Part shown: one piece after another, positions 31,604 through 50,560 of the stretch | Position numbering within the stretch: the stretch's first letter is position 1 | Layout: each line of letters opens with the position of its first letter | Source: Siphonodentalium dalli | Lineage: Eukaryota; Mollusca; Scaphopoda; Gadilida; Siphonodentaliidae | Direction of reading: 5' to 3' | DNA length: 64,000 nt | Assembly: GCA_032622095.1 (NCBI GenBank) | Contig: CP136069.1 | Coordinates: forward strand, 8,572,036-8,636,035 | Notes under the pieces: generated by a model | Database searches by the model: none | Seen by the model: the letters and a program-made list of their open reading frames with translations, nothing else | What the model was told of the DNA's origin: nothing | Made by a program: the position numbers and the translations under genes

Positions 31604-31951
31604 TACCTTCAGACGACAACGATACAATCGTAAGTGGAGGAATCGGGCCCGACGAGATCATGGATAGTTTGTTCAGACGATTGCGATGTCACATGCATGA
31701 TATCGTAGGTTGTTCTAAAGCATGTGATTGACTACTAGTAACCTACGGTCATCTTTACGTACACACGAGTGGAGCTGGAGGTAACCAAGGATACGCAAAG
31801 ATTTCGTATCTAAAATCAAACAGCGCTTGATATTAATTTATGACCTACGATTTTTACGTGGGCATGCGCAGTCCATATTCCGGTTACATCCTACGATGGA
31901 AATCTTTCCACTTACCATTGTATCATGCCTTCGTGGTTGTCTGAAGGTACA
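31604..31951. mobile_element. ~348-bp inverted-repeat unit inside the dispersed repeat
   Basis: It starts GTACCTTCAGACGACAACGA and ends with TGGTTGTCTGAAGGTAC, near-inverted. The subterminal GATACAATCGTAAGTGGA matches TCCACTTACCATTGTATC. A diverged unit lies immediately before it (31275-31610), sharing AAATCAAACAGAGCTTGATA and GGGCATGCACAGTCCA, which suggests tandem insertion or duplication. Confidence 0.6.
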
Positions 31952-32280
31952 CAAGTTTACGATTGTATCGTGGTCGTCTGAATGTACACTTAATGTTCAC
32001 TTAGTGCAATGATTCATTGATTGTAACAGTTGTTGGTATCTTATCAATGGTTGCTGATTGAATATCAGCAAAGAAAGATCACCATATAGAACTGTGAACA
32101 GAATGACAATACGGGTCAATACCACATGCCATGGTCATGTCAGATGCGTTGATGGTGCATCGGATTTTCCAACATAATCCAAGTGTTTCTGTTGTTTACA
32201 TTTGCAAAATTGTCATCACATTAAAAGTATCTATGCTTAGATTTTTAATAATGGAGTTCACAAACATGCGCACATATCCC

Positions 32281-37039: not shown

Positions 37040-37642
37040 AACCAAAGTCGCAAACGAATAAACAGACTACCCAGGTATGACCGGAATCAGAGGTCGGAGA
37101 GTCCGAACAATTCCAGGTATGACCGGAATCAGAGGTCGGAGAGTCCGAAGAACTCCGGGTATGACCGGAATTGGAGGTCGGAAAGTCCAAAGAACTCAGG
37201 GTATGACCAAAATTCCCGATATAACCGGTCCCGAACAACAGAAAATACGAAGCCGACAAATGATTCCACTCCATGGGGCAAGAGTGGAACTACCAGAGAT
37301 GGAGACGCTGCCAAAAACAGGTCATCCACAAACCAATCCTCGGATGTCAACTCAAGAATGAGCTCAATAGAGGGAGGAATGGGTGAGATGGCAGCAAACA
37401 TTAAGAAGCTGATGGGCCTAGTAGAGGAGAAGTCAAGATACCGGAATTATTCCAACTATGGGGACAGATCGAGAAGCCCTTCACCTAGGCGAAATGGGGA
37501 ATTGGTTTGCTTCAAATGTGAAAAACCAGGCCACTTTCGCCGTAACTGCCCCCAGAATGAACAACAGGACAAATTCCCGAAGAAAGTATCATTCAATAAG
37601 AGCGAGGGGTTAAACGAGAGCGGGTCGTCCATCGAGGCCTAG
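37040..37642 (+). CDS. Gag, C-terminal part (nucleocapsid), truncated
   Basis: The frame is open from 37040, after a stop at 37037, to TAG at 37640, about 200 codons. The matrix/capsid-like region expected upstream is absent. The first part has three to four 14-residue repeats built on YDRNQRSESPKNSG, a basic, Ser-rich and probably RNA-binding tract. A CCHC knuckle follows, CFKCEKPGHFRRNC (Cx2Cx4Hx4C), the RNA-packaging motif of retroelement nucleocapsids, flanked by SRSPSPRR. The last ATG-initiated piece starts at 37358. The gag frame ends 45 bases after the pol frame opens, with the -1 frameshift signal in that overlap. No start codon can be assigned because the 5' part is lost. Confidence 0.88.
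   Translation, partial: NQSRKRINRLPRYDRNQRSESPNNSRYDRNQRSESPKNSGYDRNWRSESPKNSGYDQNSRYNRSRTTENTKPTNDSTPWGKSGTTRDGDAAKNRSSTNQSSDVNSRMSSIEGGMGEMAANIKKLMGLVEEKSRYRNYSNYGDRSRSPSPRRNGELVCFKCEKPGHFRRNCPQNEQQDKFPKKVSFNKSEGLNESGSSIEA
37076..37201 (+). repeat. 42-bp tandem repeat inside gag (three copies)
   Basis: Three in-frame copies of a 42-bp unit starting TATGACCGGAATCAGAGGTC, with a partial fourth, encode the YDRN-x-RSESP repeats. The near identity of the copies points to recent slippage or unequal exchange. Confidence 0.85.
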
Positions 37643-40600
37643 AAACGACCCGAATCAAAGAAGGCCCAGGCAAAGAAAACAAGCCTTCAGAACGTGAAAG
37701 CTCCATTATAAGTAGAGAGGGTAAGGCACAACCAAGTTGTAGAACTTATAGCCTGGAGGAAGAAGAGTTCAATGCATCGATGTTCAATGTTGACTCTGAC
37801 CAAACAGGTAGTGGGTTCAAAGAAGTTGTGAGCAAGCCCGGGAACGAGGTAGGTACATCAAACCGCCCTAGCCCAATGGTGAAGCTGGACGATGCATCGT
37901 TATCCGATGCTCAGCCGGCTTACCAGGAGGATAGGGACATGAGTGGGCCTATCTTGATATCTGCCAATGAAAGAAATAGGTGGAGTAGAACAGAACCCAG
38001 GAAGGAACCGATAGGTGACGCGAGGGACGAAATACCCACGACTGGTAGAGGGGTAGAGCAAGTCGAAGAAAACTCGTGGAAGGGTGACGACGAAATCCTA
38101 TCTGAAGAGAAAACAGAATGGATCATGCCAGCTAACAGCATGAGTGGACCCCCTAGTCAAAGAAAGGCTGAGATCAAAGAGATGGGGAACTCAGAGGATC
38201 ACGATGAAACGGATCTGGTAGATTCCCCAGAATTGGAAATAGCTCAGCCTAGCGAACCATCTCCGGGTACGCTAAACAACGAAGAAGAACCCGTTGAATT
38301 CACGATCCAACAAGTTAGGGGAACCATGCTGTACATCCCAGTAGAAATCAATGGGAGCAGATTGAATGCCGTTGTTGATAGTGGTGCAGAAGTAACCATC
38401 ATATCGGATAAGGCTTTCAAGAGGCTGGAGAAACCACCTGACATCCAGAAAAGGGCGAAGATGCATACGGCAGGCAGGAATTTATGCATGAATGCGTGGA
38501 TCACCCAGCCGACCAACTTGCTAATAGGGGGAAAAACATACAGCCACCCCTTATATGTTGCTCCCGTGGGCGATGATATGCTGTTGGGGTTGGATTTCAT
38601 GAAGAAACATTCTGCCCGTATAAACCTAGACCGGGATATTATCAAATTGGGAGGAATCACTATCAGAATGGAACGCTTAGGGGATGCTGCCCATGATGGA
38701 CAAATCCAAGTACGAGTTTCCAAGGCGACTGTGGTACCTCCAGGTCAGGTGTGCTTGTGCCAGGGTGTTATGGCCGAAAATCTCAAACCATACATCCTGG
38801 AAGGAACGGAGCATCCTAGTATCATCATTCCGAGAACTGTTCACAGTGCCGGGAAAACCCCAGTGATCTGTCTCGTCAACACTTCAGAGAGATATATTAA
38901 ATTCAAGCGAGGGCAAGTTATCGCCGCAGCATCTGAGGTGGAAGTATTGCGCTGTGACGGCGGCGCCAGTGTATCAGCAGTGCGAGTCGGAACAGAACCG
39001 TACAAAATCCCAGACCATCTGATGGATTTATACAATCGTTCAGCGGAAAATTTAGAGGCAAGCCAGCAGGACGCTCTGGCTCAACTCATAAGTGAGTACG
39101 CTGATGTTTTCGCAATAGACGAATATGATCTGGGGAACTTCACGGCAATGGAACACACTATTGATACCGGAGATGCTCTGCCCATTAAAATGAACCTCCG
39201 CCGAACCCCCGTGGCTTTTGTCAATGAAGAAAAACAGCTGTTGGACAAAATGCTGAGAGCCGGCGTGATTGAACCCAGCACTTCAGAATGGGCAGCTGCA
39301 CCAGTACTGATCCGGAAACGGGACGGCAGTATTCGCTGGTGCCTCGACTACCGCGGTCTGAACTCGGTGACTAAAAAAGATGTCTGGCCAATTCCCCTGT
39401 TCTCAGAATGTGTGGATTTGTTAAGCCAGAAACAGTATTTTAGCCATCTGGATGGAAATTCTGCGTATTGGCAGATCCCCATTCGAGAAGAAGACCGCCA
39501 CAAGACTGCTTTCCTAACAAAATACGGGACCTTCCATCACGTCCAACTCGCTTTCGGTCTTTGTAACGCGCCAAGTTGCTATTCCAGGGCCATGAGCCTT
39601 GTGCTGCAGGGGTTAAACTGGAATATAGCATTGGCCTTCTTAGACGACGTTCTGGTGATGGCGTCGGATTTTTCTAGCCACGTCGTCAACCTTAAGAGGG
39701 TCCTGGAAAGATTCCGCAAATACCAACTCCGCCTAAAACCCAAAAAGTGTGGCTTGTTTCAAAGAAAAACAGAATTCTTGGGGCGAACGATAGACGGCCA
39801 AGGCATGACGATGACAGATGCCTCCTGCAAGGTCATCGAGGAGTGGCCGACCCCTCGAAATAGCAAGGACGTAGAAAGATTTTTGGGATTGGCAGGATAC
39901 CACAGAATGTTCGTAAAGAACTTCTTGAAGCTCGCCGCCCCCCTACACCAGCTCACGGGGAAGAATCCAAAATTTGAATGGGGTTACGAGCAAGAAGAGG
40001 CTTTCCTTGCCTTAAGAGAAGCCCTTATGACACCCCCGGTTCTTGCTCTACCGACAATAGAGGACCCATTCATACTGGATACGGATGCCTCGGACGGGGC
40101 GATAGGCGCAGAGCTAATCCAAGTCCAGGAAGGGGTGGAGAAAGTCATTGCGTATGGAAGCATATCTTTGAGTCGTGAGCAAAAGAACTATTGCACGACT
40201 CGTAAAGAATTACTGGCCATGGTATTTTTCGCCAGGACGTTCCGGCACTATTTGCTGGGGCGACCTTTTGTGGTGCGAACTGACCACGCCAGCCTGACAT
40301 GGCTCCTACGCTTCAAGCACCCCCAAGGCCAGATTGCACGATGGCTGGAAGAGCTGAGCCAATACCAAATGACAATTAAGCATCGCCCAGGAGCGCGTCA
40401 TCAAAACGCAGACGCAATATCACGCCTAGTGGATGAAGATCCTTGTCATTGTTTCAAGGCAGGGGTGATATTAGAAGATTTGCCCTGTGGTGGGTGCAAA
40501 TACTGCCAAAGGGCAGAAGAGAAATGGGGAGCGTTCATTGATTCGGTGGATGACGTGATCCCCTTGGCTCAAGTCCGGGCACAGTCCATAAACTTGGAGC

Positions 40601-42690
40601 ACCAAGTTATGGACGTGACGTGTCCCATGCTGTGGCCATGGGATCCAGGGGGGTCAAGAATGAAAGAACACCGGACGGAAATAAGGGAACTTACCTTAAT
40701 TCCCGACTGGGGTTCGGAACTAGGATCCCACCCTACCGTGACCTGTGTTGCGAAAGTGACAAATGGGGAGGAAATCTCCCACCAAGTTGGGGTAGGTGTT
40801 GCGAAAGCGACAATAGGGGAAGTTCAAGGGAACCCCGAATCCGGGTTAATAAAGGTAAGTGCGACCGACTTAGGAAAAGTCCATTTTATCGGTTCCATTG
40901 ACATACCCCATATGGAAATCATTACGGTGAGTCAGGTCGTGGCAGACGCATGCCCGCTTCAACTGTATACGGCTGACGACCTGAAAGAAGCACAAGGTGA
41001 GGACGTGGATTTACACAAAATTATAGAGTGGGTACAACAGAAGAAGGACCCTGAAGAGGGAGAATTATTTAGATGCAGTCCTTGGGTGAAATATCTGTGG
41101 ATTAATAAAGATCGCTTGAAGATGAGAGAGGGAGTACTCTGGATGATAAACAGACAAGAGCAGACAGTCAGAGTTCTTCCTTGGAATTTGCAGGGTGAAG
41201 CGATAAGAGTGTGCCACGATTTACCAGCATCAGGGCACCAAGGGATGGAAAGAACGTTGGAAAGAGCGAAACAGAATTTCACGTGGTACCACATGTCAGA
41301 AAGCGTCCGCCAATATGTTTCGGGGTGTCAACAGTGCAATGCAAGTAAGAAGTTGAACCGAAAGGCAAAGAACCCCATGATTATGTTTCATTCAGGTTAC
41401 CCCATGGAGAGAGTTCATCTAGACTTTCTGGGACCGCTCCCAGCCACGGATCGTGGCAACGAGCATATCCTGGTGATGGTCGATCAATTCACGAAATGGG
41501 TGGAATGCGTACCGTTACCTAACCAGACTGCGGAAACGACTGCCCAGGCAGCCGTGAACGAGTTTTTTACTAGGTTCGGGTACCCGTTCCAAATATTTAC
41601 TGACCAGGGTGCCAATTTCCAAAGTAAATTGTTTACGGCACTATGTGACCTGATGAAGATACATAAGACCAAAACTACAGCCTATAGACCATCGGCGAAT
41701 GGGCAATGTGAGAATCACAACAAGACCTTGATGGCAGCTGTTAGATGCTTTGTGGAGAAATGCCCAAATCAATGGGACAAGTACGTGTCGCAGATAGCTG
41801 GGGCACTACGGTCATCTGTGAATCGATCCACAGGATTCACGCCGAACAAATTAATGCTGGGGAGGGAAGTGAACCACCCAGCTGGATTGATGTTCGGAGA
41901 TCCCAGCCCGGGAGAAGAAGAAGTCCACGAGTATCTAAAGGTCTTGAGTGCGAATATCCGTGAGGCTCACGATATAGCAAGAAAAACTCTGGTAACCACG
42001 CAGAAAAAAATGAAGCGTGATTATGACACCAAAATACTACAGAAGGTATACCATCCTGGGGAGTTAGTGTATATTTTGGACACAGCCGTCATAAAGGGAA
42101 AACCCAAGAAGCTTCAGCCGGTATGGAAAGGTCCGGGAATTGTGGTTGACCAGATAACACCCTTCTTGTATAAAGTGAAGTTGCAAAAAGCCCAATTCGT
42201 CACTAATCACGACAAGATGAAGCTATGCCAGAACCGAGAAATCCCACCTTGGCTGAAAACCTTTGTAGATAATGGGTTCAGCTTGGTGGAGGTTGTGGAT
42301 AGTTATTCATCCGTCCTAAAGGGTAAAGGAAAAAAGGTGAGTCCGGACTGGCAGGGGCCGAAGATTATCACTCAGAAATTATCACCTTTTCTGTATGAGG
42401 CAAAGGACCAAACCATCGTTAGTCGTCTTCTGCCTGACCGACTAAGAAAACACAAAGGTAAGACGCCGACATGGATAAAAGCCATCCGCAAGGGACTACC
42501 CATTTTGGGAACCAAGACGCGCTCCGAATATTGTTTCTGTAGAAAACCGGACAAAGGAACATTTATGATTCAGTGTAACACCTGCGAAGAATGGTTTCAT
42601 GGGCCTTGCGTGCGTATCTCCGAAGAAGACGCGAAACATCTGGATATTTACAGTTGTCGGAACTGCCTAAATCAAAGCGGAAAAACGTAG
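37600..42690 (+). CDS. Pol polyprotein: protease, RT, RNase H, integrase, PHD finger
   Basis: The frame opens at 37600; the first ATG is at 37780, and residues are numbered from it (1636 aa). Entry is probably by -1 frameshift from gag. Aspartic protease: DSGA at 200-203 and LLGLDF at 268. Reverse transcriptase about 480-690: DYRGLN, and FLDD catalytic box at 620-623. RNase H: D767, E810, D835, D878. A Cys cluster follows (C889, C891, C903, C906, C909). Integrase: HHCC finger H1146, H1153, C1183, C1186, then D1215, D1275, E1311, that is D-59-D-35-E. Two GPY/F-like modules centre on WKGP (1449) and WQGP (1524). A complete C4HC3 PHD finger spans 1585-1629, seven residues before the stop. No internal stop or frame break is seen. 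Chromodomains are known at this position in other Ty3 elements; a PHD finger is not usual. Confidence 0.96.
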   Translation, partial: ERGVKRERVVHRGLETTRIKEGPGKENKPSERESSIISREGKAQPSCRTYSLEEEEFNASMFNVDSDQTGSGFKEVVSKPGNEVGTSNRPSPMVKLDDASLSDAQPAYQEDRDMSGPILISANERNRWSRTEPRKEPIGDARDEIPTTGRGVEQVEENSWKGDDEILSEEKTEWIMPANSMSGPPSQRKAEIKEMGNSEDHDETDLVDSPELEIAQPSEPSPGTLNNEEEPVEFTIQQVRGTMLYIPVEINGSRLNAVVDSGAEVTIISDKAFKRLEKPPDIQKRAKMHTAGRNLCMNAWITQPTNLLIGGKTYSHPLYVAPVGDDMLLGLDFMKKHSARINLDRDIIKLGGITIRMERLGDAAHDGQIQVRVSKATVVPPGQVCLCQGVMAENLKPYILEGTEHPSIIIPRTVHSAGKTPVICLVNTSERYIKFKRGQVIAAASEVEVLRCDGGASVSAVRVGTEPYKIPDHLMDLYNRSAENLEASQQDALAQLISEYADVFAIDEYDLGNFTAMEHTIDTGDALPIKMNLRRTPVAFVNEEKQLLDKMLRAGVIEPSTSEWAAAPVLIRKRDGSIRWCLDYRGLNSVTKKDVWPIPLFSECVDLLSQKQYFSHLDGNSAYWQIPIREEDRHKTAFLTKYGTFHHVQLAFGLCNAPSCYSRAMSLVLQGLNWNIALAFLDDVLVMASDFSSHVVNLKRVLERFRKYQLRLKPKKCGLFQRKTEFLGRTIDGQGMTMTDASCKVIEEWPTPRNSKDVERFLGLAGYHRMFVKNFLKLAAPLHQLTGKNPKFEWGYEQEEAFLALREALMTPPVLALPTIEDPFILDTDASDGAIGAELIQVQEGVEKVIAYGSISLSREQKNYCTTRKELLAMVFFARTFRHYLLGRPFVVRTDHASLTWLLRFKHPQGQIARWLEELSQYQMTIKHRPGARHQNADAISRLVDEDPCHCFKAGVILEDLPCGGCKYCQRAEEKWGAFIDSVDDVIPLAQVRAQSINLEHQVMDVTCPMLWPWDPGGSRMKEHRTEIRELTLIPDWGSELGSHPTVTCVAKVTNGEEISHQVGVGVAKATIGEVQGNPESGLIKVSATDLGKVHFIGSIDIPHMEIITVSQVVADACPLQLYTADDLKEAQGEDVDLHKIIEWVQQKKDPEEGELFRCSPWVKYLWINKDRLKMREGVLWMINRQEQTVRVLPWNLQGEAIRVCHDLPASGHQGMERTLERAKQNFTWYHMSESVRQYVSGCQQCNASKKLNRKAKNPMIMFHSGYPMERVHLDFLGPLPATDRGNEHILVMVDQFTKWVECVPLPNQTAETTAQAAVNEFFTRFGYPFQIFTDQGANFQSKLFTALCDLMKIHKTKTTAYRPSANGQCENHNKTLMAAVRCFVEKCPNQWDKYVSQIAGALRSSVNRSTGFTPNKLMLGREVNHPAGLMFGDPSPGEEEVHEYLKVLSANIREAHDIARKTLVTTQKKMKRDYDTKILQKVYHPGELVYILDTAVIKGKPKKLQPVWKGPGIVVDQITPFLYKVKLQKAQFVTNHDKMKLCQNREIPPWLKTFVDNGFSLVEVVDSYSSVLKGKGKKVSPDWQGPKIITQKLSPFLYEAKDQTIVSRLLPDRLRKHKGKTPTWIKAIRKGLPILGTKTRSEYCFCRKPDKGTFMIQCNTCEEWFHGPCVRISEEDAKHLDIYSCRNCLNQSGKT
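37609..37666 (+). promoter_or_regulatory. -1 programmed ribosomal frameshift signal (gag to pol)
   Basis: The heptamer G TTA AAC (37609-37615) is in the gag reading frame and re-pairs as GTT AAA in the pol frame. After a 5-base spacer (GAGAG) comes a perfect 8-bp stem, CGGGTCGT (37621-37628) with ACGACCCG (37645-37652), and a 16-base loop. Loop bases GGCCT (37636-37640) can pair with AGGCC (37662-37666), giving a possible H-type pseudoknot. The pol frame opens at 37600, just upstream, and the gag stop is inside the loop. Every part of a standard -1 site is present at the expected spacing. Confidence 0.82.
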
Positions 42691-43281
42691 GGTTGCGCGC
42701 GGTTCACTAAATCTCCGGACATGTTATCCCAGTGAATGCCTATCAGACTGGTAAAGCTTGTAACTAAATTAGATCCGTACGAGTTTATTGGTTAGGCTAG
42801 ATGAAAATGTAACAGGTAATGCCTGATGATCAGGTTTGCTATCATTTAAAGGGATATACGGAAATTAACCGGGGACCGGTAACGCCTAACAATCATTAAT
42901 ACGTCAAAATTACAATCTTATTTGATATACAGTATCAAGGAATAGAGGTGGAATGGGCCCTTAAAGATGCCTTTGCTTTTCAGGCTCGAACACACGAGGA
43001 TTCCACCCATCTTCCAGTCTTCCGTCTTCCAGTCGTCCGTCTTCCAGTCTTCCGTAGCCACGCGTCGTCCATCCTCGCAAGTCTACAGTTTTCCAGTCTT
43101 TTGCTGCCACAAGTCTGCAATCTTCTGCTGCCACAAGCTTGTCGTCTTCCAATCTTCTGCTGTCAACGTCATCGGTTGTCAAACGTCTTTCAACTTCTCA
43201 TAGCACCTAATATATGTTGGATGCACAAATTTATGTTCGGAGCACGTAATGTAACTCCCATATCCCGGTAACAACCCAACC
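42691..43281 (+). other. Spacer after pol
   Basis: Non-coding, with TCTTCCAGTC and CTTCTGCTGCCACAAG short repeats at about 43010-43170, which resemble the repetitive 3' part of the element. No ORF is credible. Confidence 0.5.
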
Positions 43282-43540
43282 TTTCTTCAAGCGTCAGTAT
43301 CTTCGAAGAAAATCAGCCTTTCTTCAAGCGTCAGTATCTTCGAAGAAAATCAGCCTTTCTTCAAGCGTCAGTATCTTCGAAGAAAATCAGCCTTTCTTCA
43401 AGCGTCAGTATCTTCGAAGAAAATCAGCCTTTCTTCAAGCGTCAGTATCTTCGAAGAAAATCAGCCTTTCTTCAAGCGTCAGTATCTTCGAAGAAAATCA
43501 GCCTTTCTTCAAGCGTCAGTATCTTCGAAGAAAATCAACC
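43282..43540 (+). repeat. 37-bp minisatellite, seven copies
   Basis: Seven head-to-tail, almost identical copies start at 43282, 43319, 43356, 43393, 43430, 43467 and 43504. Each contains TTTCTTCAAGCGTCAGTATC followed by TTCGAAGAAAATCAGCC, including the palindrome CTTCGAAG. There are no unique spacers, so it is not CRISPR-like. It lies between pol and the third ORF. Confidence 0.95.
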
Positions 43541-43546
43541 TTCTTG

Positions 43547-43708
43547 AATCTGCATCAGCATCAGTATCTTCAAAGAAGATCATCCAACAGCTGGTTAAGA
43601 AATCTGCATCAGCATCAGTATCTTCAAAGAAGATCATCCAACATCTGGTTAAGAAATCTGCATCAGCATCAGTATCTTCAAAGAAGACCCTCCAGTTCCT
43701 GTTAAGTA
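43547..43708 (+). repeat. 54-bp minisatellite, three copies
   Basis: Copies start at 43547, 43601 and 43655 with AATCTGCATCAGCATCAGTA, then TCTTCAAAGAAGATCATCCA. The motif TCAGTATCTTC is shared with the 37-bp array just upstream, so the two arrays probably have a common origin. Confidence 0.9.
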
Positions 43709-44254
43709 AAATACATCGGTGTCTTGAAAGAAGATCAGCTAATTTTCTGTTTAAACTGTTTAAAGTGACATTTAATCTGGACCGTGTCTCTAAAGAAGAT
43801 TGTCCACCTTCCGGTGAAAACTTCAGTGTCAGTGTCAGAATAGTCACTCATAGCTGAGGCGTTGTCCATCTCAAAGCTTCAAGCTGACCACAGATCCGAG
43901 TCACACTTTCCCGTGGTTCAGCAGTACTGAATCTGTGCAGAAAGCTCCAATGTTGGTTGTATGTCGATTGTGTCCCTATCTGTAGTTTTGGAGGATAATG
44001 AGTTTGCAGATTGTAATGAATTATTGAAAATTGGTAAAGAAATATTCTATATTAAGTTGTCATAAGGAGGTAATTTTAATATCTCATCGTAATAGGTCTT
44101 TTCGGTTAGGCTATTGGTATTGTTCTTCTGTTTACACGGTTAAAAATGTTGCCGTCGTAATTCAATCTCTTATGAGTACTGTATTTCCAAGATTGTTTTG
44201 ATTACCTTGATCTCCATCTCCCTAGTTCTTTGTAAAGGTTTTCCTCCATAAAAT
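43709..44254 (+). other. Leader of the third ORF with a candidate splice acceptor
   Basis: A pyrimidine-rich run ending in CTCCATCTCCCTAG (44225) lies 30 bases before the ATG at 44255. Env-position ORFs of LTR elements are often expressed from spliced RNA, and this could be the acceptor. That is inference; no donor was identified because the 5' end is lost. Confidence 0.4.
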
Positions 44255-47038
44255 ATGGACGTGGATAAGGAAAATATCAGCCCTAGGAGGGAGTGGCGCC
44301 CAAAATTGTCTATCACGGAGAGGGTCCAGAAGGCATGTCGTAACCATTCATTGATGGATGTCACCACCTTGTTCAATGAGATTGGGTTTGATGATGACCT
44401 GCACGCCCCTCAGATTGAGGATCTGACCCTGATGCAATATCGGCTCGCGGTGTACCAGAAAAACGCGCGATGGATCACGCGATGCCGACAAGATGCTAGA
44501 CTATTTTTGGATGATACCTGGATAGATAACAAGCTTCCAAGTCTCGACGGACAACAGAAAATTTCTCGCCAGCGCCCGGCTACAAGACGCCCTACTGAAA
44601 CAGAAACCATAGATACCAGAGATCACACCACCGTCCTTTATGAACTCTCTTCCTCTCGAAGAAACGACACCGAGGTTAGAAATTCTTCATATTCTTCCAC
44701 GTCTTCCTCAGTAAAGCCACCGCCTTCCGCAGCATCATCTTCACAGTCATCCGTACTGCTTAACCAGGAGCAGCCTCCTTCTTCCAGACCTTCCGGTCAG
44801 AGACCGGCCATACCTTCTGCGTCGATGTCTTCTTCCTCGTTAGATCAACCGTTGCGACCGTACCGCGTACTGCGACCACGCTCCGAAGCCGAAAGGAACC
44901 GGTCTCACTCACATCAAAGACAAAGTCATTCCTCTCATAGAGAATCTCGACAACCGCAGGGTGCATCTCGTGCAGATCGACGCCATTCACCACGTATTTC
45001 CAGAAACCATGGACGGCGGGACTCTAGGGCAACCATTCCCTATCGCCATTCTCCAGTAAGGAAATCTTCAATGCGCCACTCACCATATCCGAGATCTCAG
45101 GGGTCAGGGAGGGCACAGCCTTATGAACCACCCCTTCGAGAACGTCAACGTTCGGTCGCACCCTTTCGATCACATCAGGGTAACATGTCATTGCGGAGAT
45201 CAAGGTCTTCTCCTTCTCGTAGGAATCCATCCAGTCTCGACTCGCGAGATACTGTGATTCCTTCAGCTCCGTCTCCTCGAAGGAATCCATCCAGTCTCGA
45301 CTCGCGAGATACTATGATTCCTTCAGCTCCGTCTCCTCGAAGGAATCCATCCAGTCTCGACTCGCGAGATATTGTGATTCCTTCAGCTCAGTCTTCTCGT
45401 AGGAATCCGCCCAGTCTCGACTCCCGAGATATTGGGATTCCTTCATCTCAGTCTTCTTCCCAGAAGAATCAGTCTCGTCTCGACTCCCGAGACATTGGGA
45501 TTCCTCCGTTTCAGTCTTCCCGGATAGACCCGTCTCGTCTTGACTCCCAGGATAGTGGGGTCCATCCATCACCTTTTATCTTGCCGAATCCTCCCCGTCT
45601 CGAATCTCGAGGCTCTGAGGCTTCACCATTATATTCTTCTATTCTGAAGAATCCTCCCCGTCTCGAATCTCGAGGCTCTGAGGTTGCACCATTAAATAAT
45701 TCTATTATGAGGAATTCGCCCAATCTCGATTCTCGAGATTCTGAGGGCCCATCATTATATTCTTCTGTTCTGGGGAACCTACCCCGTCTCGAATCCCGAG
45801 ATTCTGAGGTTTCCAGTTTTAACGTCATGCCATTGACTGGGGGAGCTACGACAGAGATCAATACCTCTGTTAAATCTACAGATTCTCGGGTAATTCTTCC
45901 CATGGAGTTACTGACTGAGGAAGTCAATTCTCTTCCTTCTTTGGAGACCTCTCTTGTTGAGCCAGGTGAGAAGCAGGTTAGCAAGAAAGTTCCACCTCGT
46001 AACGACACCAAGTGTCCTCTGTGCGGTCAACCGTCTAAGAAGATGAAACGGCATTGCATGGTCCATCATCTCCCTCAAACAGTCTGGGAATTTAGGACAG
46101 CAGATCAACCCCAACCGGAAGATTGGGAATTTCTTTTGCTCTTCCTTGCTAAACGTCTTAACTGTAGCCTCGCGGAGTTGATTGGAAAGTGTAACAACAG
46201 CTCCGTAAGGATGCCGTCTTCGAGCATCACACCCGATTGTTTGACCATGATGGCAGAATTTCAGTCTTTTCTTCACACACAGTATGATTGGCCAGTGGTG
46301 GACAAGTTTTCTCTCCATCCCATAAACTCTGTGGCCGTGCTTCTGCACTGGAGACCTCTTTGCAATTTGCTACTCCAAATTCCCCTGGAGGGACAGAAGA
46401 GTTTTCGTAATCTTTGCCCAGGTCGCCTTTGCAATTTTGTAAACAGATCTGGGAAAGCTCGACTGAACCAGCAGCATCTGACCGCTGAATTGAACCTGAC
46501 TAATGTAAAGAAGTCCGATGGAGTACCCATATCCAAGAAGAAGAAACCGGTTTATCCGAATCTCCACATCCAGATATCAGGCGAGTCTTTTCCACCGCCC
46601 CATAAACTCCAGATAGAATGCGGACCTCCCCGAATTGTCAGCTGTTCCCCTCCAACTGCAGATCCTGCGATTTCAACGCTCCCCCACCTTCAGGGGTTGA
46701 GATCAGCCACTCAACAGGTTCTGACAATACTGTTCCACCTGTCCCGCAACCACCAATCTACACTCCAGATGCTGTTTCTACAGTTCTGGATCCAGGTGTA
46801 CTTACTGTGGATGCTGTACGGACAGTTCCGGTTCTCTCGGAATCTCCCACTGGGTCAATGGACACGACCATGGTTCTGGGAAGTGACCCTCCCCTTACAC
46901 CGGGGGTCAGCGACTCTGCTAACGCGGATAGTATTCTTGGGAGCCCATCAGGCCAGTGGCCTCCCCTCAGTGTTCCGCAGAATAGGATCAGCCGAATCAC
47001 TCTTCCTATTCTTCCCCCACCTCGGGATTTTGGGCTAG
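44255..47038 (+). CDS. Third ORF, N-terminal part: Ser/Arg-rich repeat protein with C2H2-like finger
   Basis: The frame runs 927 codons; roughly the first 809 look genuine and the remainder lies past a frame break. Residues 1-95 form a charged, probably folded head beginning MDVDKENISP, which includes a KEN tripeptide. Residues about 95-320 are low-complexity, rich in Ser, Arg and Pro. About 321-520 holds ten or eleven degenerate 20-residue repeats of RRNPSSLDSRDTVIPSAPSP type. A C2H2-like finger follows: C587, C590, H600, H604 or H605, within CPLCGQPSKKMKRHCMVHHL. About 610-760 is a probable globular region (WEFLLLFLAKRLNCSLAEL). No signal peptide or membrane segment appears, so it is not an envelope protein. 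At about 46681 coding sense passes to the -1 frame, which carries the TatD domain. This is probably one gene of about 1,206 codons, now broken or frameshifted. Confidence 0.78.
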   Translation: MDVDKENISPRREWRPKLSITERVQKACRNHSLMDVTTLFNEIGFDDDLHAPQIEDLTLMQYRLAVYQKNARWITRCRQDARLFLDDTWIDNKLPSLDGQQKISRQRPATRRPTETETIDTRDHTTVLYELSSSRRNDTEVRNSSYSSTSSSVKPPPSAASSSQSSVLLNQEQPPSSRPSGQRPAIPSASMSSSSLDQPLRPYRVLRPRSEAERNRSHSHQRQSHSSHRESRQPQGASRADRRHSPRISRNHGRRDSRATIPYRHSPVRKSSMRHSPYPRSQGSGRAQPYEPPLRERQRSVAPFRSHQGNMSLRRSRSSPSRRNPSSLDSRDTVIPSAPSPRRNPSSLDSRDTMIPSAPSPRRNPSSLDSRDIVIPSAQSSRRNPPSLDSRDIGIPSSQSSSQKNQSRLDSRDIGIPPFQSSRIDPSRLDSQDSGVHPSPFILPNPPRLESRGSEASPLYSSILKNPPRLESRGSEVAPLNNSIMRNSPNLDSRDSEGPSLYSSVLGNLPRLESRDSEVSSFNVMPLTGGATTEINTSVKSTDSRVILPMELLTEEVNSLPSLETSLVEPGEKQVSKKVPPRNDTKCPLCGQPSKKMKRHCMVHHLPQTVWEFRTADQPQPEDWEFLLLFLAKRLNCSLAELIGKCNNSSVRMPSSSITPDCLTMMAEFQSFLHTQYDWPVVDKFSLHPINSVAVLLHWRPLCNLLLQIPLEGQKSFRNLCPGRLCNFVNRSGKARLNQQHLTAELNLTNVKKSDGVPISKKKKPVYPNLHIQISGESFPPPHKLQIECGPPRIVSCSPPTADPAISTLPHLQGLRSATQQVLTILFHLSRNHQSTLQMLFLQFWIQVYLLWMLYGQFRFSRNLPLGQWTRPWFWEVTLPLHRGSATLLTRIVFLGAHQASGLPSVFRRIGSAESLFLFFPHLGILG
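45215..45580 (+). repeat. 60-bp tandem repeat inside the third ORF
   Basis: Three nearly identical 60-bp copies begin near 45217, 45277 and 45337 (AGGAATCCATCCAGTCTCGA then CTCGCGAGATACTGTGATTC). More diverged copies continue in phase to about 45810. All keep the reading frame. Confidence 0.88.
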
Positions 47039-47874
47039 CTAGAATGGCTGTAGATTCACACTTCCATTTAGATCGCTTGCATGATTGTCTTAGAGGCTAT
47101 CCGAAATTTGACATAGACGACATGCTCCAATATCGACCTTCGCCGTTCCCGACGACTCCTATCAACCTTATAGGTGGAGTGATGATCTTCTGTGATCCCT
47201 CCACTTACCCGGTTGACATCCGTGTTGATACCCCGTTTAAGACGGCCGTTGGTCTCCATCCAAAGAAAGCCGGTCTTTATTCATCTTACCATAAACGTCT
47301 CGATGAATTGTTTGCACATCCCGGTACGGTCGCAATTGGCGAAATTGGACTGGACCGGACTATGGCACCCAGCTACTGGGAGCAACAAGATTCTGTCTTT
47401 AGGGATATCGTCAAGTCTGCAGTACTATATCAGAAGCCCATAGTTCTTCATTTACGAGGTCTTGCGAATTTCCCTGCGGATGTCTATGCCCGAGGACACA
47501 AGATTGTCTCCGACGTCTGTCCTCCTAACCAACTAATTCATCTTCACTGCTTCAATGCTGGCGTGGAGGAGTTCCAACAGTGGAGCAACTCCTTTCCCCA
47601 TTGCTACTTTGGTTTTACGGCTGCTGTGACATTCTTCAACGTGTCTCAGAAAAGGGCGTTGCAAGCCATACCTTCTTCCCGTCTTTTGTTGGAAACTGAC
47701 TCTCCCTACTTTGGTCATCCTTGGGGAGCCGAAATCAGTAGCCCCGCCTATATTGGAAATGTTGCACGAGTCGTATCTGACATCCGGAACGAAAGTCTTC
47801 AGGACATCTTACAAGCAACGATTCTGAATACTAGCAGGTTTTACGGAACACCTGTTCCGGGGAACTTCCTTTAA
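46606..47874 (+). CDS. Third ORF, C-terminal part: TatD-family metal-dependent DNase
   Basis: The frame opens at 46606; the first ATG is at 46618 (418 aa). Residues 1-140 are a Pro/Ser-rich linker continuing the upstream repeat protein. From M143 the TatD amidohydrolase fold starts and holds its usual metal-binding and catalytic positions: HFH (H147, H149), GEIGLD (E242), HLRG (H278), HLHCF (H308, H310) and ETDSPY (D361). VGLHPKKA and LLLETDSPYFGHPWG also match the family. The ~275-residue domain is close to the usual 260-300. TatD proteins are TIM-barrel, Mg-dependent DNases acting on DNA ends, known in repair and apoptotic DNA breakdown. Here the gene lies downstream of pol on the same strand and before the polypurine tract. 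The ATG at 46618 may not be the true start, because the N-terminal part is encoded in the overlapping frame. TAA ends at 47874. Confidence 0.94.
   Translation, partial: TPDRMRTSPNCQLFPSNCRSCDFNAPPPSGVEISHSTGSDNTVPPVPQPPIYTPDAVSTVLDPGVLTVDAVRTVPVLSESPTGSMDTTMVLGSDPPLTPGVSDSANADSILGSPSGQWPPLSVPQNRISRITLPILPPPRDFGLARMAVDSHFHLDRLHDCLRGYPKFDIDDMLQYRPSPFPTTPINLIGGVMIFCDPSTYPVDIRVDTPFKTAVGLHPKKAGLYSSYHKRLDELFAHPGTVAIGEIGLDRTMAPSYWEQQDSVFRDIVKSAVLYQKPIVLHLRGLANFPADVYARGHKIVSDVCPPNQLIHLHCFNAGVEEFQQWSNSFPHCYFGFTAAVTFFNVSQKRALQAIPSSRLLLETDSPYFGHPWGAEISSPAYIGNVARVVSDIRNESLQDILQATILNTSRFYGTPVPGNFL
46681..46685 (+). other. Probable frame-break point (C5 tract) in the third ORF
   Basis: Upstream, the frame read from 44255 has protein-like sense through ADPAIST. 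Downstream, the -1 frame continues with APPPSGVEIS and a similar Pro/Ser-rich composition. The change falls at or near CTCCCCCACC. A one-base loss in the C-run would explain it. No X XXY YYZ heptamer is present, so a programmed shift is less likely, though slippage on CCC CAC cannot be excluded. Confidence 0.55.
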
Positions 47875-49222
47875 TATTCTCTCCCTCAGTCGGGACCAAC
47901 CGCCACATCGGCGTTTCTTTGTGTATTATATTGTAATGTTTCAACTAGCCGGACCAATGAAGTAATCATCATTCCTGTTTTTCATGGTAGAATTATCATC
48001 TTCCCCTTTAGTAGAATTCCCGTATATACTCCGGAACTCCTCTTGGACTAGACGGACCCATCATGATTCCTGTTTTAGATAACGTTGGAAACCAATTAAT
48101 TTGTCAAATGTTTGAGTATTCTTCTATATATTTCCCCGTAGGTTCACTAAACAAGTCTGAGGTGACTGAATCAATTGGATAGTATTGTTGGGTGTATGGA
48201 AGCATATCACGAGTATCTGTATTGTCTATTTAGTCAGGAAGTAATAATGGGATTCTATATTCATAAGTTAACATGGTTTATTATAAAGTATTATATATCA
48301 CATTAAGTTTGTCAAGTTGAAACTAAACAGAGCCCCTATTCTATTTAACAGAGGTTATTAATCACATTAATTCATAAGTAAGCATAATAAATGGTAATTT
48401 CCACCTGTCAGCCATGGTGTCAGAAAGAGTGCGTCTTTCTTGTTCAGTGTCCAGTTCTGTTTCCTCTGTCTTTGGAGATACAGGGAGTCCTTTCTACATC
48501 CATATTTCGGCCAGGCCAACTGGACATCTTTTCTTAACCACACCACTGTCTTTATGCTATTTTTGGCACTACAACGCGGGGATCCGTGTTTGCTTCGTCG
48601 CCAATGAAACCAAACAGGACATTGTATTCAGGTTTAACATCATGGTTTATTCTATCATACATTGTCACAATGCAACCCAACAGGACTATACATTGTCTAT
48701 TATCATGGTTTATTACAAAGTATTAGATGTCACAATTAGGTATAAAGTCATATTCAACATGTCTGCCAATATTGGTGTGGTCTAGTCGGGATTCAGTTCT
48801 GTTCTAAAATAATAAAAGGAATCTACTCTCTGTATATAATATGGTCAATAAAGTAATAGGACATTGAATTCTCTATTTAACCTAATTCGTTATAATAGCA
48901 AGAATGGGTCTTGCTCGGTCAGCGATCAGTTATGTTTTGTCATACTGGGTCGCTAAGATTTTGTAAATATGTTATGAGTTTGTCTGATCCGGCCCGAGGA
49001 ACTATTGTAGATGCGAGTTTCTCGTTCTGCTGGTCCTCCTTGGTATTGAGCTTGTCCTTTTCGCTGAGAAGAAGTCTTCATTCTCCTTGTCTGACAGCCT
49101 TGCCCAACCAGATGCCGGCCTGGAAGCGAGCACATCGTTCCATATATTCTTTGTTTAATGCACTCGAGAGAGGAAACAGCTCCACAACAATCTTGGGTAA
49201 CGAGGTCACCCGACCCAGACTG
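47875..49222 (+). other. 3' non-coding part of the retroelement
   Basis: AT-rich, with no protein domain. Repeated phrases such as CATGGTTTATTATAAAGTAT (48271) and a variant at 48704 show internal duplication. Frames of 105-123 codons here have no recognised similarity. Confidence 0.5.
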
Positions 49223-49497
49223 ACATGAGAAATGAACCCCAAATGAAGACTTCCTAGTCTGATGTAGTGGTTCTATATATCATCTTTGTCACCATAATCC
49301 GTCCGAACCAAGATCGATACGAGAAATGAACCCCAAATGAAGACTTCCTGGTCTGATGTAGTGGTTCTCTATATCGTCTTTGCCGCCTCAATCCGTCCGA
49401 ACCATGACTAACCCAGGAAAGGAATCTCGATGAAGACTCTTGGGTCTGATGTATTGATTCCCTGTATCGTCTATGCCACCATAATTCGCAAATCACA
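49223..49497 (+). repeat. ~95-bp tandem repeat, about three copies
   Basis: AGAAATGAACCCCAAATGAA, GACTTCCTAGTCTGATGTAG and CATAATCCGTCCGAACCA recur at about 49226 and 49320, with a diverged third copy at about 49413. It lies in the 3' non-coding region of the retroelement. Confidence 0.8.
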
Positions 49498-49634
49498 ACG
49501 AATAGCAAAGGCACTAGTCTAGTTGGAAGGATCAGGGCCCTGATGACGACGGTCGGCGTCTACCCGAAGATTTAAGCTGAGTAGAATCCTCAAGGGAGCA
49601 TCATGTTGTACATATGTATATTCTGCATTATTTC

Positions 49635-49885
49635 CTGTCCCACGGAGCATCCGAATAAACTCATTCTTCCACGGAGCATCCGAATAAACTCATTTCGTCC
49701 ACGAAGCGTTCCGAGGAATCCAATTCTTCTACAGAGCATCTGAATCGACTCATTCCTCCATGGAGCCTCCAAATAAACTCATTTCGTCCGCTGAGCGTTC
49801 CAGAAAATTCAACCCTTCTACGAAGCATCCGGCGGGACTCATTTCTTCTATGGAGCATCCGGGGTCTTTCATTTCTTCAATTCAG
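49635..49885 (+). repeat. ~30-bp tandem repeat near the 3' end of the retroelement
   Basis: About eight variable units of the form CACGGAGCATCCGAATAAAC followed by TCATTCTTC run in tandem. They end about 45 bases before the polypurine tract. Minus-strand frames here are repeat translations. Confidence 0.8.
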
Positions 49886-49929
49886 ATGTCTGGTTTATCT
49901 CATTCCACCGGAGATGGAGCCAATTCTTC

Positions 49930-49943
49930 AAAGTGAGGGGGAA
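49930..49943 (+). promoter_or_regulatory. Polypurine tract
   Basis: AAAGTGAGGGGGAA directly precedes the TG that begins the LTR. A purine-rich tract here is the expected primer for plus-strand DNA synthesis. One T interrupts it. Confidence 0.7.
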
Positions 49944-50168
49944 TGTAGCGGTTTTGGCCTCTTGTTCCACCGAGATCCTCCGGAAACCCACGGAGATGTA
50001 TCTACACCACTCGGAACGACTCACGTGACCCGACTCTTCCCGAAGGTGACGTCATCCGGGAATTCACGACACTTCAACGACAGCCTTCAAACCGACAACA
50101 TCGCTCCGCGCTCAAGACTTCTATAATAGGTAATTTCATTAGATAACATCACTTATAAACCCTAATCA
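49944..50168 (+). repeat. 3' LTR (225 bp)
   Basis: It begins TGTAGCGGTTTTGGCC right after the polypurine tract and ends ACCCTAATCA, giving the TG...CA ends of LTRs. A possible TATA-like TATAATA is at 50123. Just past the end the sequence resumes the dispersed repeat of 30.3-32.3 kb (GACATGCGCAGTCCAG), which fixes the right border. No second copy was found upstream, so the 5' LTR is lost and neither LTR identity nor the target duplication can be measured. Confidence 0.72.
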
Positions 50169-50560
50169 TGTTATAGACATGCGCAGTCCAGCTACCAGTT
50201 ACTTCCTACGACGGAAATCTTTCCACTTACTATTTGAATTTCCATCGTGGTTGTCTGAAACTCTGAATGTACACTAACACTTAAGCAAGTTAATGTAACG
50301 TTCACTTACATGTAGTGCAATGATTCATTGATTGTTGTTGGCATCTAATCAATGGTTGCTGATTGAATATCACCATGTAGAACTTTGAACATAATGACAT
50401 TGACAATAGACCTACCATGATTGATGTTTTGATGGTGCATCGAATTTTCCAAGTTTTCTGTTGTTTTCATTTGCAAAATTGTCATCACGTTGAAAGTATC
50501 TATGCTTAGAAATTATGGACAGAATCACAGATGGAGTTCACAAATATGCACACATACTGA
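50169..50560. repeat. Right piece of the dispersed repeat (copy 2)
   Basis: It matches about 31860-32280: GCGCAGTCCA, CGACGGAAATCTTTCCACTT, GTGCAATGATTCATTGATTG, CAATGGTTGCTGATTGAATA and GTATCTATGCTTAGA follow in the same order. It continues the copy whose left piece is at 36126-36176. Confidence 0.8.

What the first reader, a model, noticed from the sequence alone, without database searches (positions are those of the whole stretch)
44255..47874. TatD-family DNase gene in the env position of a Ty3/Gypsy-type retroelement
Seen: same-strand order gag, pol, a Ser/Arg-rich protein with C2H2-like finger running into a TatD domain, polypurine tract, LTR. Known: TatD proteins are metal-dependent DNases of cellular genomes, while third ORFs of LTR elements normally encode envelope-like proteins. 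Inference: the element captured a nuclease, with a DNA/RNA-binding head, for use in replication, end trimming, integration or counter-defence. I know of no described element of this design.
Basis: partly seen in the sequence, partly recalled or inferred. Interest (0 to 1): 0.92.

Follow-up and report, generated by a model that had tools for sequence, protein, structure and literature searches.

The report
Nuclease-family gene carried by animal retrotransposons
A group of jumping elements in marine invertebrate genomes carries an extra, selectively maintained gene for a TatD-type nucleic-acid-cutting enzyme, placed where related viruses keep their envelope gene, which hints at a nuclease step in the life of these elements that has not been recognised.

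Summary
Window 37040-50175 (+) is one 5'-truncated Ty3/Gypsy-type element: gag fragment, intact pol (PR-RT-RH-IN-PHD), a third gene ending in a TatD domain, polypurine tract, 3' LTR. Here the third gene is split over two frames; 10 of 17 near-identical copies have it open over 1,000 codons or more. In the host genome 67 of the 86 pol copies listed have a listed TatD match downstream on the same strand within 12 kb; 0 of 86 have one upstream or antisense. The pairing holds where pol is only 54-60% identical (41 of 56), and on seven contigs from other sources. TatD is under purifying selection like RT (pN/pS 0.10 and 0.14), its metal-ligand-type residues kept. The gene also has a helical N-terminal domain, an Arg/Ser-rich arm and a C2H2-helical block. 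Best mechanism, inferred and untested: a nucleic-acid-binding 3' nuclease that cleans ends or leftover RNA of replication intermediates; counter-defence is the main rival. A DEDDy-exonuclease third ORF in bdelloid rotifers is a precedent (PMC5408684), so this is a new variant of a known kind; my paper searches listed no TatD in an LTR element.

The parts
37040..37639 (+). 3' fragment of gag with CCHC zinc knuckle
   Evidence: open frame; zf-CCHC E 8.6e-07 in 37358-37639; no capsid match in the window, capsid match present in other copies
37780..42690 (+). pol: aspartic protease, RT, RNase H, integrase zinc finger and core, C-terminal PHD finger
   Evidence: one 1636-aa frame; Pfam domains
42532..42666 (+). 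PHD finger at the C-terminus of integrase (pol residues 1585-1629)
   Evidence: PF00628 E 2.5e-08; PF00628 listed for 111 of the best 120 pol relatives (counted by eye)
42691..44254 (+). gap between pol and third gene without a long + strand frame of its own kind, with 37- and 54-base tandem repeats (43240-43708)
   Evidence: 37- or 44-base arrays at about the same place in 3 of 5 other copies examined (the two second-family copies had none)
44255..47038 (+). third gene, first frame: N-terminal domain, Arg/Ser-rich region with 20-aa repeats, C2H2 finger, helical block
   Evidence: N-terminal model E 2.4e-19 and C2H2-helical model E 3e-22
44309..44605 (+). conserved N-terminal domain of the third gene
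   Evidence: residues 20-118 of the piece starting at 44252 match the model; helical with high pLDDT in relative P0013
46004..46408 (+). C2H2-like finger followed by conserved helical 'HWR' block
   Evidence: two Cys, two His and the Arg of HWR invariant in 22 of 22 rows of A3
46606..47874 (+). third gene, second frame holding the TatD domain
47041..47871 (+). TatD nuclease domain
   Evidence: PF01026 E 2.9e-39; model pLDDT 91.5; top PDB match YcfH 1yix, TM 0.77/0.80
49930..49943 (+). polypurine tract beside the 3' LTR
   Evidence: read; same stretch beside a nested copy's LTR in L097
49944..50175 (+). 3' LTR, about 232 bases
   Evidence: 49942-50175 matches the 5' LTR of another copy (L089 214-437, 93%), followed there by a primer-binding-site-like stretch; exact ends not proven

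Best explanation
The TatD ORF is the third gene of a group of Ty3/Gypsy-like LTR retroelements (shown). Its product is a roughly 1,000-1,200-residue protein: helical N-terminal domain, Arg/Ser-rich disordered arm, C2H2 plus helical block, then a TatD barrel with intact ligand-type residues (shown by sequence and model). The most likely action, inferred: the front part binds element RNA or reverse-transcription intermediates, and the barrel works as a metal-dependent 3' nuclease that trims 3' ends and removes leftover RNA (primer remnants or RNA in hybrids), helping to finish cDNA before or during integration. It is probably made from a separate downstream mRNA, since it begins 1.5 kb after pol (inferred). 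Anatomy and membership about 0.97, mechanism about 0.45.
For: Co-location: 67 of 86 listed pol copies have a listed TatD downstream, 0 of 86 upstream or antisense; 18 of 20 re-read copies carry pol upstream; 7 exact same-source contig-length matches in other sources against a mean of 0.148 and a maximum of 3 with shifted lengths; one Nucella gene model runs integrase-PHD into the third gene's N-terminal domain. Co-inheritance: pol and TatD tree distances over 8 pairs correlate, r 0.48, exact P 0.016. Selection: TatD pN/pS 0.10 in 17 copies against RT 0.143 in 13. Catalysis likely: Asp, His, His, Glu, His, His, Asp set invariant in A1 (16 of 16), A3 (22 of 22, overlapping A1) and 17 of 17 copies. 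Known chemistry: E. coli TatD is annotated as 3'->5' ssDNA/RNA exonuclease, human TATDN2 is described as a Mg2+-dependent 3' RNA exo- and endonuclease acting on R-loop RNA (PMC10707325, passages).
Against: No biochemical or expression data. Pol already has RNase H and integrase domains, so the need for another nuclease is not obvious. 19 of 86 listed pol copies have no listed TatD, including 2 of 21 at 94% or more; some may be truncated, some unscored (140 of 564 TatD candidates scored). Copies are related, so counts are not independent events.
Confidence: 0.55

Rival explanations
1. Counter-defence: the protein degrades or trims host nucleic acids that restrain the element, such as small guide RNAs, or cytosolic DNA or hybrids that trigger sensing.
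For: Same selection and domain evidence. The fast-changing Arg/Ser part (pN/pS 0.529) would fit an arms race but also simple disorder. The bdelloid ORF3 paper mentions a silencing-related role as a possibility for its DEDDy ORF (PMC5408684, passages).
Against: No specific link to small RNAs or sensors seen. The gene is kept across deep divergence of pol, which I would expect less of an accessory anti-defence gene.
Confidence: 0.25
2. Integration-site helper: the PHD finger of integrase reads active chromatin and the TatD protein clears RNA:DNA hybrids (R-loops) at such sites so that integration can proceed.
For: PHD finger listed in 111 of 120 pol relatives; TATDN2 acts on R-loop RNA (PMC10707325, passages). 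That PHD fingers read H3K4me3 is recalled, not tested.
Against: No insertion-site preference was measured; no evidence of contact between the two proteins.
Confidence: 0.13
3. Mainly structural: an RNA-binding accessory or packaging protein in which TatD activity is incidental.
For: Arg/Ser-rich arm, C2H2 and helical domains; N-terminal domain pN/pS 0.107.
Against: Ligand-type residues invariant in the rows and copies examined and low TatD pN/pS.
Confidence: 0.1
4. Accidental neighbour: a host TatD gene or unrelated repeat beside a pol fragment.
For: In the window alone only one LTR is present.
Confidence: 0.01

Closest known systems
Bdelloid rotifer LTR retrotransposons with DEDDy exonuclease or GDSL esterase ORF3 (Juno, Vesta; PMC5408684, abstract and passages read)
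   Same: LTR elements with an enzymatic third ORF downstream of pol, catalytic residues largely kept, no env features in these ORFs
   Different: DEDDy is an RNase D-like exonuclease, not TatD, and the word TatD does not occur in that paper; here an N-terminal domain, a C2H2-helical block and a PHD-bearing integrase accompany it. Proteins with the C2H2-helical block were hit in bivalves, gastropods, sea urchins, a hemichordate and a brachiopod, though the link to pol was checked only in the host genome, seven contigs, Nucella and Magallana
Orchid Ty3/Gypsy elements with an m6A demethylase ORF (PMC9289625, passages read)
   Same: Extra enzymatic ORF retained through element diversification
   Different: Different enzyme, plant host; that protein's activity was tested
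TatD family nucleases (E. coli TatD, YcfH; human TATDN1 and TATDN3)
   Same: Same fold and ligand-type residues
   Different: Joined to an element-specific front part and encoded by an LTR element
Human TATDN2 (PMC10707325, passages read)
   Same: Animal TatD nuclease, acts on RNA in R-loops; a front part before the TatD domain is recalled
   Different: Host gene; its sequence was not compared here. Database rows that bear the name TATDN2 fall in both large animal groups of the TatD tree, so the name alone does not separate host from element genes

Membership tests
Ty3/Gypsy-type LTR retroelement | pol order PR-RT-RH-IN in one frame | tested here: met
Ty3/Gypsy-type LTR retroelement | gag with capsid and CCHC upstream of pol | tested here: met
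   only the CCHC fragment in the window; capsid match in copies L089, L099, L100, L101 with CCHC matches upstream of pol there
Ty3/Gypsy-type LTR retroelement | two LTRs, PBS and PPT in one copy | tested here: inconclusive
Ty3/Gypsy-type LTR retroelement | target-site duplication | not tested
   needs both ends of one copy
Ty3/Gypsy-type LTR retroelement | RT placement on a tree with reference Gypsy clades | not tested
   no reference set at hand
TatD nuclease family (PF01026) | profile match above curated cut-off | tested here: met
   135.4 bits against 27
TatD nuclease family (PF01026) | fold like solved TatD enzymes | tested here: met
   pLDDT 91.5; 1yix TM 0.77/0.80
TatD nuclease family (PF01026) | metal-ligand-type residues HxH, E, H, H, D | tested here: met
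   invariant in 16 of 16, 22 of 22 and 17 of 17; their role as ligands is recalled
TatD nuclease family (PF01026) | 3' nuclease activity | not testable with these tools
   needs biochemistry
Envelope-like third ORF | transmembrane segment | tested here: not met
   simple 19-residue hydropathy scan, cut-off 1.6: highest 1.38 in 44255-46552 and 1.12 in 46606-47871; 5 of 22 relatives reach 1.65-1.82, at places that fall in or near the helical block or TatD domain
DEDDy-exonuclease ORF3 of bdelloid LTR elements | DEDDy exonuclease domain in ORF3 | tested here: not met
   Pfam found TatD only in the window's second frame, nothing in the first, and TatD only in P0013, P0280, P0297, P0309

The most novel reading that the evidence does not exclude
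A whole animal group of LTR retroelements has made a TatD nuclease a standing third gene, so that its replication cycle uses a dedicated 3' nuclease besides RNase H and integrase, possibly coupled to a chromatin-reading PHD integrase; the step it performs would be a new step in LTR element replication.
Probability: 0.35. Interest if true: 0.85.

Novelty: new variant of a known kind. Interest (0 to 1): 0.68.

Why it matters
As far as I recall, LTR elements are taken to manage with RNase H and integrase as their nucleic-acid-cutting activities. A retained, selected TatD gene across deeply diverged elements implies either an unrecognised replication or integration step or a way to blunt host defence, and the activity can be tested directly on a small isolated domain. 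It also bears on annotation: several mollusc and sea urchin proteins that databases name TATDN2 or TatD hydrolase group with the element genes in the tree, so claims about TatD genes in such genomes should be checked for mobile origin.

Tried and rejected
Rejected: accidental adjacency; single host gene; env-like protein.

Led nowhere or partly: scans of viral contigs with TatD and pol gave three TatD-bearing contigs and no pol relative; the two of them kept in the tree fall with E. coli YcfH and TatD. The genome-contig scan with pol gave 46 generic Gypsy loci at 27-38% identity in prokaryote assemblies; 12 TatD proteins found no TatD domain in them, only zinc knuckles in four; many contigs are short, so this is a weak control. 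Paper searches: TatD+retrotransposon+gypsy (1 paper), TatD+retroelement (2 papers), TatD+bivalve (5 papers), seen as listings, none on TatD in an LTR element by title and abstract start; allowed fewer terms and listed only 20 of 183 and 15 of 12,448 papers. Only the held open-access library was searched; Repbase was not at hand. The genome-wide LTR search was asked ten times and never answered (with 49942-50177; 126, 129, 132, 134, 136, 139 with 49942-50175). The structure look-up with the 720-residue model only tested the TatD part, so nothing is said about the folds of the other domains. The first TatD pN/pS of 0.47 was an alignment slip caused by a 3-base insertion in L068, with alignment, give 0.10. 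Family A against B is saturated at synonymous sites. The tree (116 rows after thinning) does not make the C2H2-helical TatD rows one clade: 25 label changes, at least 14 of them forced by starred branches; a number of unlabelled rows are short proteins that may just lack the front part.
Full report
What is there. Window 37040-50175 on the + strand is a single LTR element copy cut short at its 5' end. Gag is present only as a 3' fragment with a CCHC knuckle (37040-37639). Pol is one open frame, 37780-42690, with protease, RT, RNase H, integrase zinc finger and core, and a C-terminal PHD finger. After a 1.5-kb gap with tandem repeats comes the third gene, 44255-47874, then about 2 kb with only short frames, a polypurine tract (49930-49943) and an LTR (49944-50175). 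The LTR was recognised because its sequence reappears at the 5' side of another copy (L089), followed there by a primer-binding-site-like stretch and, further on, gag. No second LTR was found in the window.

The third gene. The first frame (44255-47038) holds a conserved N-terminal domain, an Arg/Ser-rich part with 60-63-base repeats, and a C2H2 finger joined to a helical block; the second frame (open from 46606) holds the TatD domain. Relatives encode these parts in one frame (P0280, P0297, P0309: 1,076-1,126 residues), and in the host genome 10 of 17 near-identical copies are open over 1,005-1,207 codons. The frame change, somewhere between about 46550 and 46980, is thus damage or an error in this copy. 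In a model of relative P0013 the N-terminal domain, the C2H2-helical block and the TatD barrel are confident, and the arm between the first two (130-256) is low-confidence, as disordered parts are. The window's own TatD domain models at pLDDT 91.5 and matches YcfH, a S. aureus TatD enzyme and human TATDN1.

It belongs to the element. Host genome G000 has 2.23 Gb in 9 contigs. The TatD domain has 142 listed matches there (140 of 564 candidates scored), 17 of them full-length at 98-100% identity on seven contigs; others are partial or more distant. I re-read the 9 kb upstream of 16 of these 17 (all but the window) and of 4 of the 7 full-length copies of a second family at 62-63%: pol domains lie upstream on the same strand in 15 of 16 and 3 of 4, and the order integrase, PHD, N-terminal domain, C2H2-helical block is kept in 13 of 16 and 3 of 4. 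Starting from pol, 86 integrase matches were listed (86 of 4,745 candidates scored); 67 have a listed TatD match 1.8-7.2 kb downstream on the same strand (19 of 21 with pol at 94% or more, 7 of 9 at 62-93%, 41 of 56 at 60% or less), and 0 of 86 have one upstream or antisense within 12 kb. Seen from TatD, 69 of 141 rows have a listed pol upstream (20 of 23, 8 of 18 and 41 of 100 by falling identity). Both lists are capped, so rows without a partner are not shown to lack it; but two pol copies of 98% identity, facing each other on C7, have none listed and were not read further.

It is not limited to this genome. The protein search with TatD listed the best 120 of 2,088 hits; the named animal ones are mostly bivalves and gastropods, with hemichordates, echinoderms and one isopod. 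A second search from P0013 listed the best 120 of 424 (8,000 candidates scored), adding among others Pecten, Mya and the brachiopod Lingula. The C2H2-helical model matches 143 of these 216 TatD proteins and the N-terminal model 61. The pol search listed the best 120 of 299. The lists carry contig lengths: seven pol/third-gene pairs share an exact contig length of 6.9-16 kb and a source, while lengths shifted by 1 to 300 gave a mean of 0.148 and a maximum of 3 over 600 shifts. Equal length and source imply, but do not prove, the same contig. One pair (P0137, P0310) carries the same Thiodiazotropha (ex Lucinoma) bin name as far as printed, presumably clam DNA in a symbiont bin. A Nucella gene model (P0208) runs from integrase and PHD into the third gene's N-terminal domain (E 4.4e-05), and a Magallana gene model (P0036) joins a pol piece and TatD. 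Over the seven pairs plus the window, pol and TatD tree distances correlate (r 0.48, P 0.016 over all 40,320 permutations).

It is under selection. Among 17 near-identical copies TatD has pN/pS 0.10 (39 synonymous and 17 non-synonymous distinct changes); seven second-family copies give 0.12. The same measure gives RT 0.143, RNase H 0.147, integrase core 0.035, PHD 0.175, N-terminal domain 0.107, C2H2-helical block 0.307, protease 0.473 and a part of the Arg/Ser arm 0.529 (13-15 copies each). Pooled pairs share ancestry, so these are descriptive. Asp5, His7, His9, Glu101, His137, His169 and Asp220 are the same in all 17 and in both alignments of relatives. In the second family one decayed copy (L078) has a stop and has changed the first Asp.

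Where the TatD came from. In a tree of 116 TatD domains (thinned, SH-aLRT support), 5 bacterial and viral-contig rows stand apart (91), a group of 18 rows holds the CCHC-type proteins and two echinoderm TATDN2-named ones (94), and the window lies in a group of 92 rows, 66 of which, the window included, match the C2H2-helical model (93). Other TATDN2-named rows (Mercenaria, Pecten, Lytechinus) fall in this larger group, and 2 rows that match the helical model fall among the 18. The label is not one clean clade. The source was probably an animal or earlier mobile TatD rather than a recent bacterial gene, but the tree does not settle it.

How it probably works. E. coli TatD is annotated as a 3'->5' ssDNA/RNA exonuclease, and human TATDN2 is described as a Mg2+-dependent 3' RNA exo- and endonuclease that removes RNA from R-loops (PMC10707325, passages). 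A basic arm plus a C2H2 block suits nucleic-acid binding. The window frames have no transmembrane-like segment; 5 of 22 relatives have a hydrophobic stretch just over the cut-off, in or near globular parts. I therefore favour processing of 3' ends or leftover RNA in reverse-transcription or integration intermediates. Counter-defence, and R-loop clearing beside a PHD-guided integrase, remain open. None of the functional steps is shown.

What is known. Bdelloid LTR elements carry ORF3s for DEDDy exonuclease, GDSL esterase and env-like proteins; that paper (abstract and passages read) suggests 3'-end processing for the exonuclease and does not contain the word TatD. Orchid Gypsy elements carry an RNA demethylase (PMC9289625, passages). 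A survey of mollusc LTR elements (PMC6238403, passages) had no hit for PHD, env, ORF3 or third ORF. My paper searches (and in part 24 and 64) listed nothing on TatD in an LTR element. So the kind (LTR element with an enzymatic third ORF) is known and the variant appears new.

Noticed in passing
P0175 residues 1065-1234 (database protein): A pol of this same group carries a Tpt1/KptA RNA 2'-phosphotransferase domain between integrase and the PHD finger (PF01885 E 4.2e-43), another added RNA enzyme.
   Followed up: no
window 42259-42530 (pol residues about 1494-1584): Relatives match the stretch before the PHD finger as a second, overlapping piece, as if a GPY/F-like segment were doubled in the window pol; a self-comparison found no significant repeat.
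   Followed up: partly
P0036 residues 592-671 (Magallana gigas): A weak viral alkaline exonuclease/YqaJ match lies behind TatD in the same gene model.
   Followed up: no
P0167 residues 7-43: Helix-hairpin-helix motif at the start of a gag-pol of this group.
   Followed up: no
P0078, P0086, P0090, P0099, P0100, P0103, P0110: TatD proteins with CCHC zinc knuckles in the protein list; whether host or element genes was not tested.
   Followed up: no
window 31863-32241 and 50178-50510: Two stretches 74% alike; the second begins just behind the 3' LTR, so the element sits beside or in another repeat.
   Followed up: no
window 43240-43708, 49213-49493, 49642-49819: Tandem repeats of 37, 54, 94 and 89 bases in the non-coding parts of the element; the array before the third gene differs in unit and copy number among copies.
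   Followed up: partly
L097 642-928 (minus strand) and L091 1-4349: A nested 3' end of another copy, identical to the window over 287 bases, and a 1.8-kb direct duplication in the pol part of one copy.
   Followed up: no
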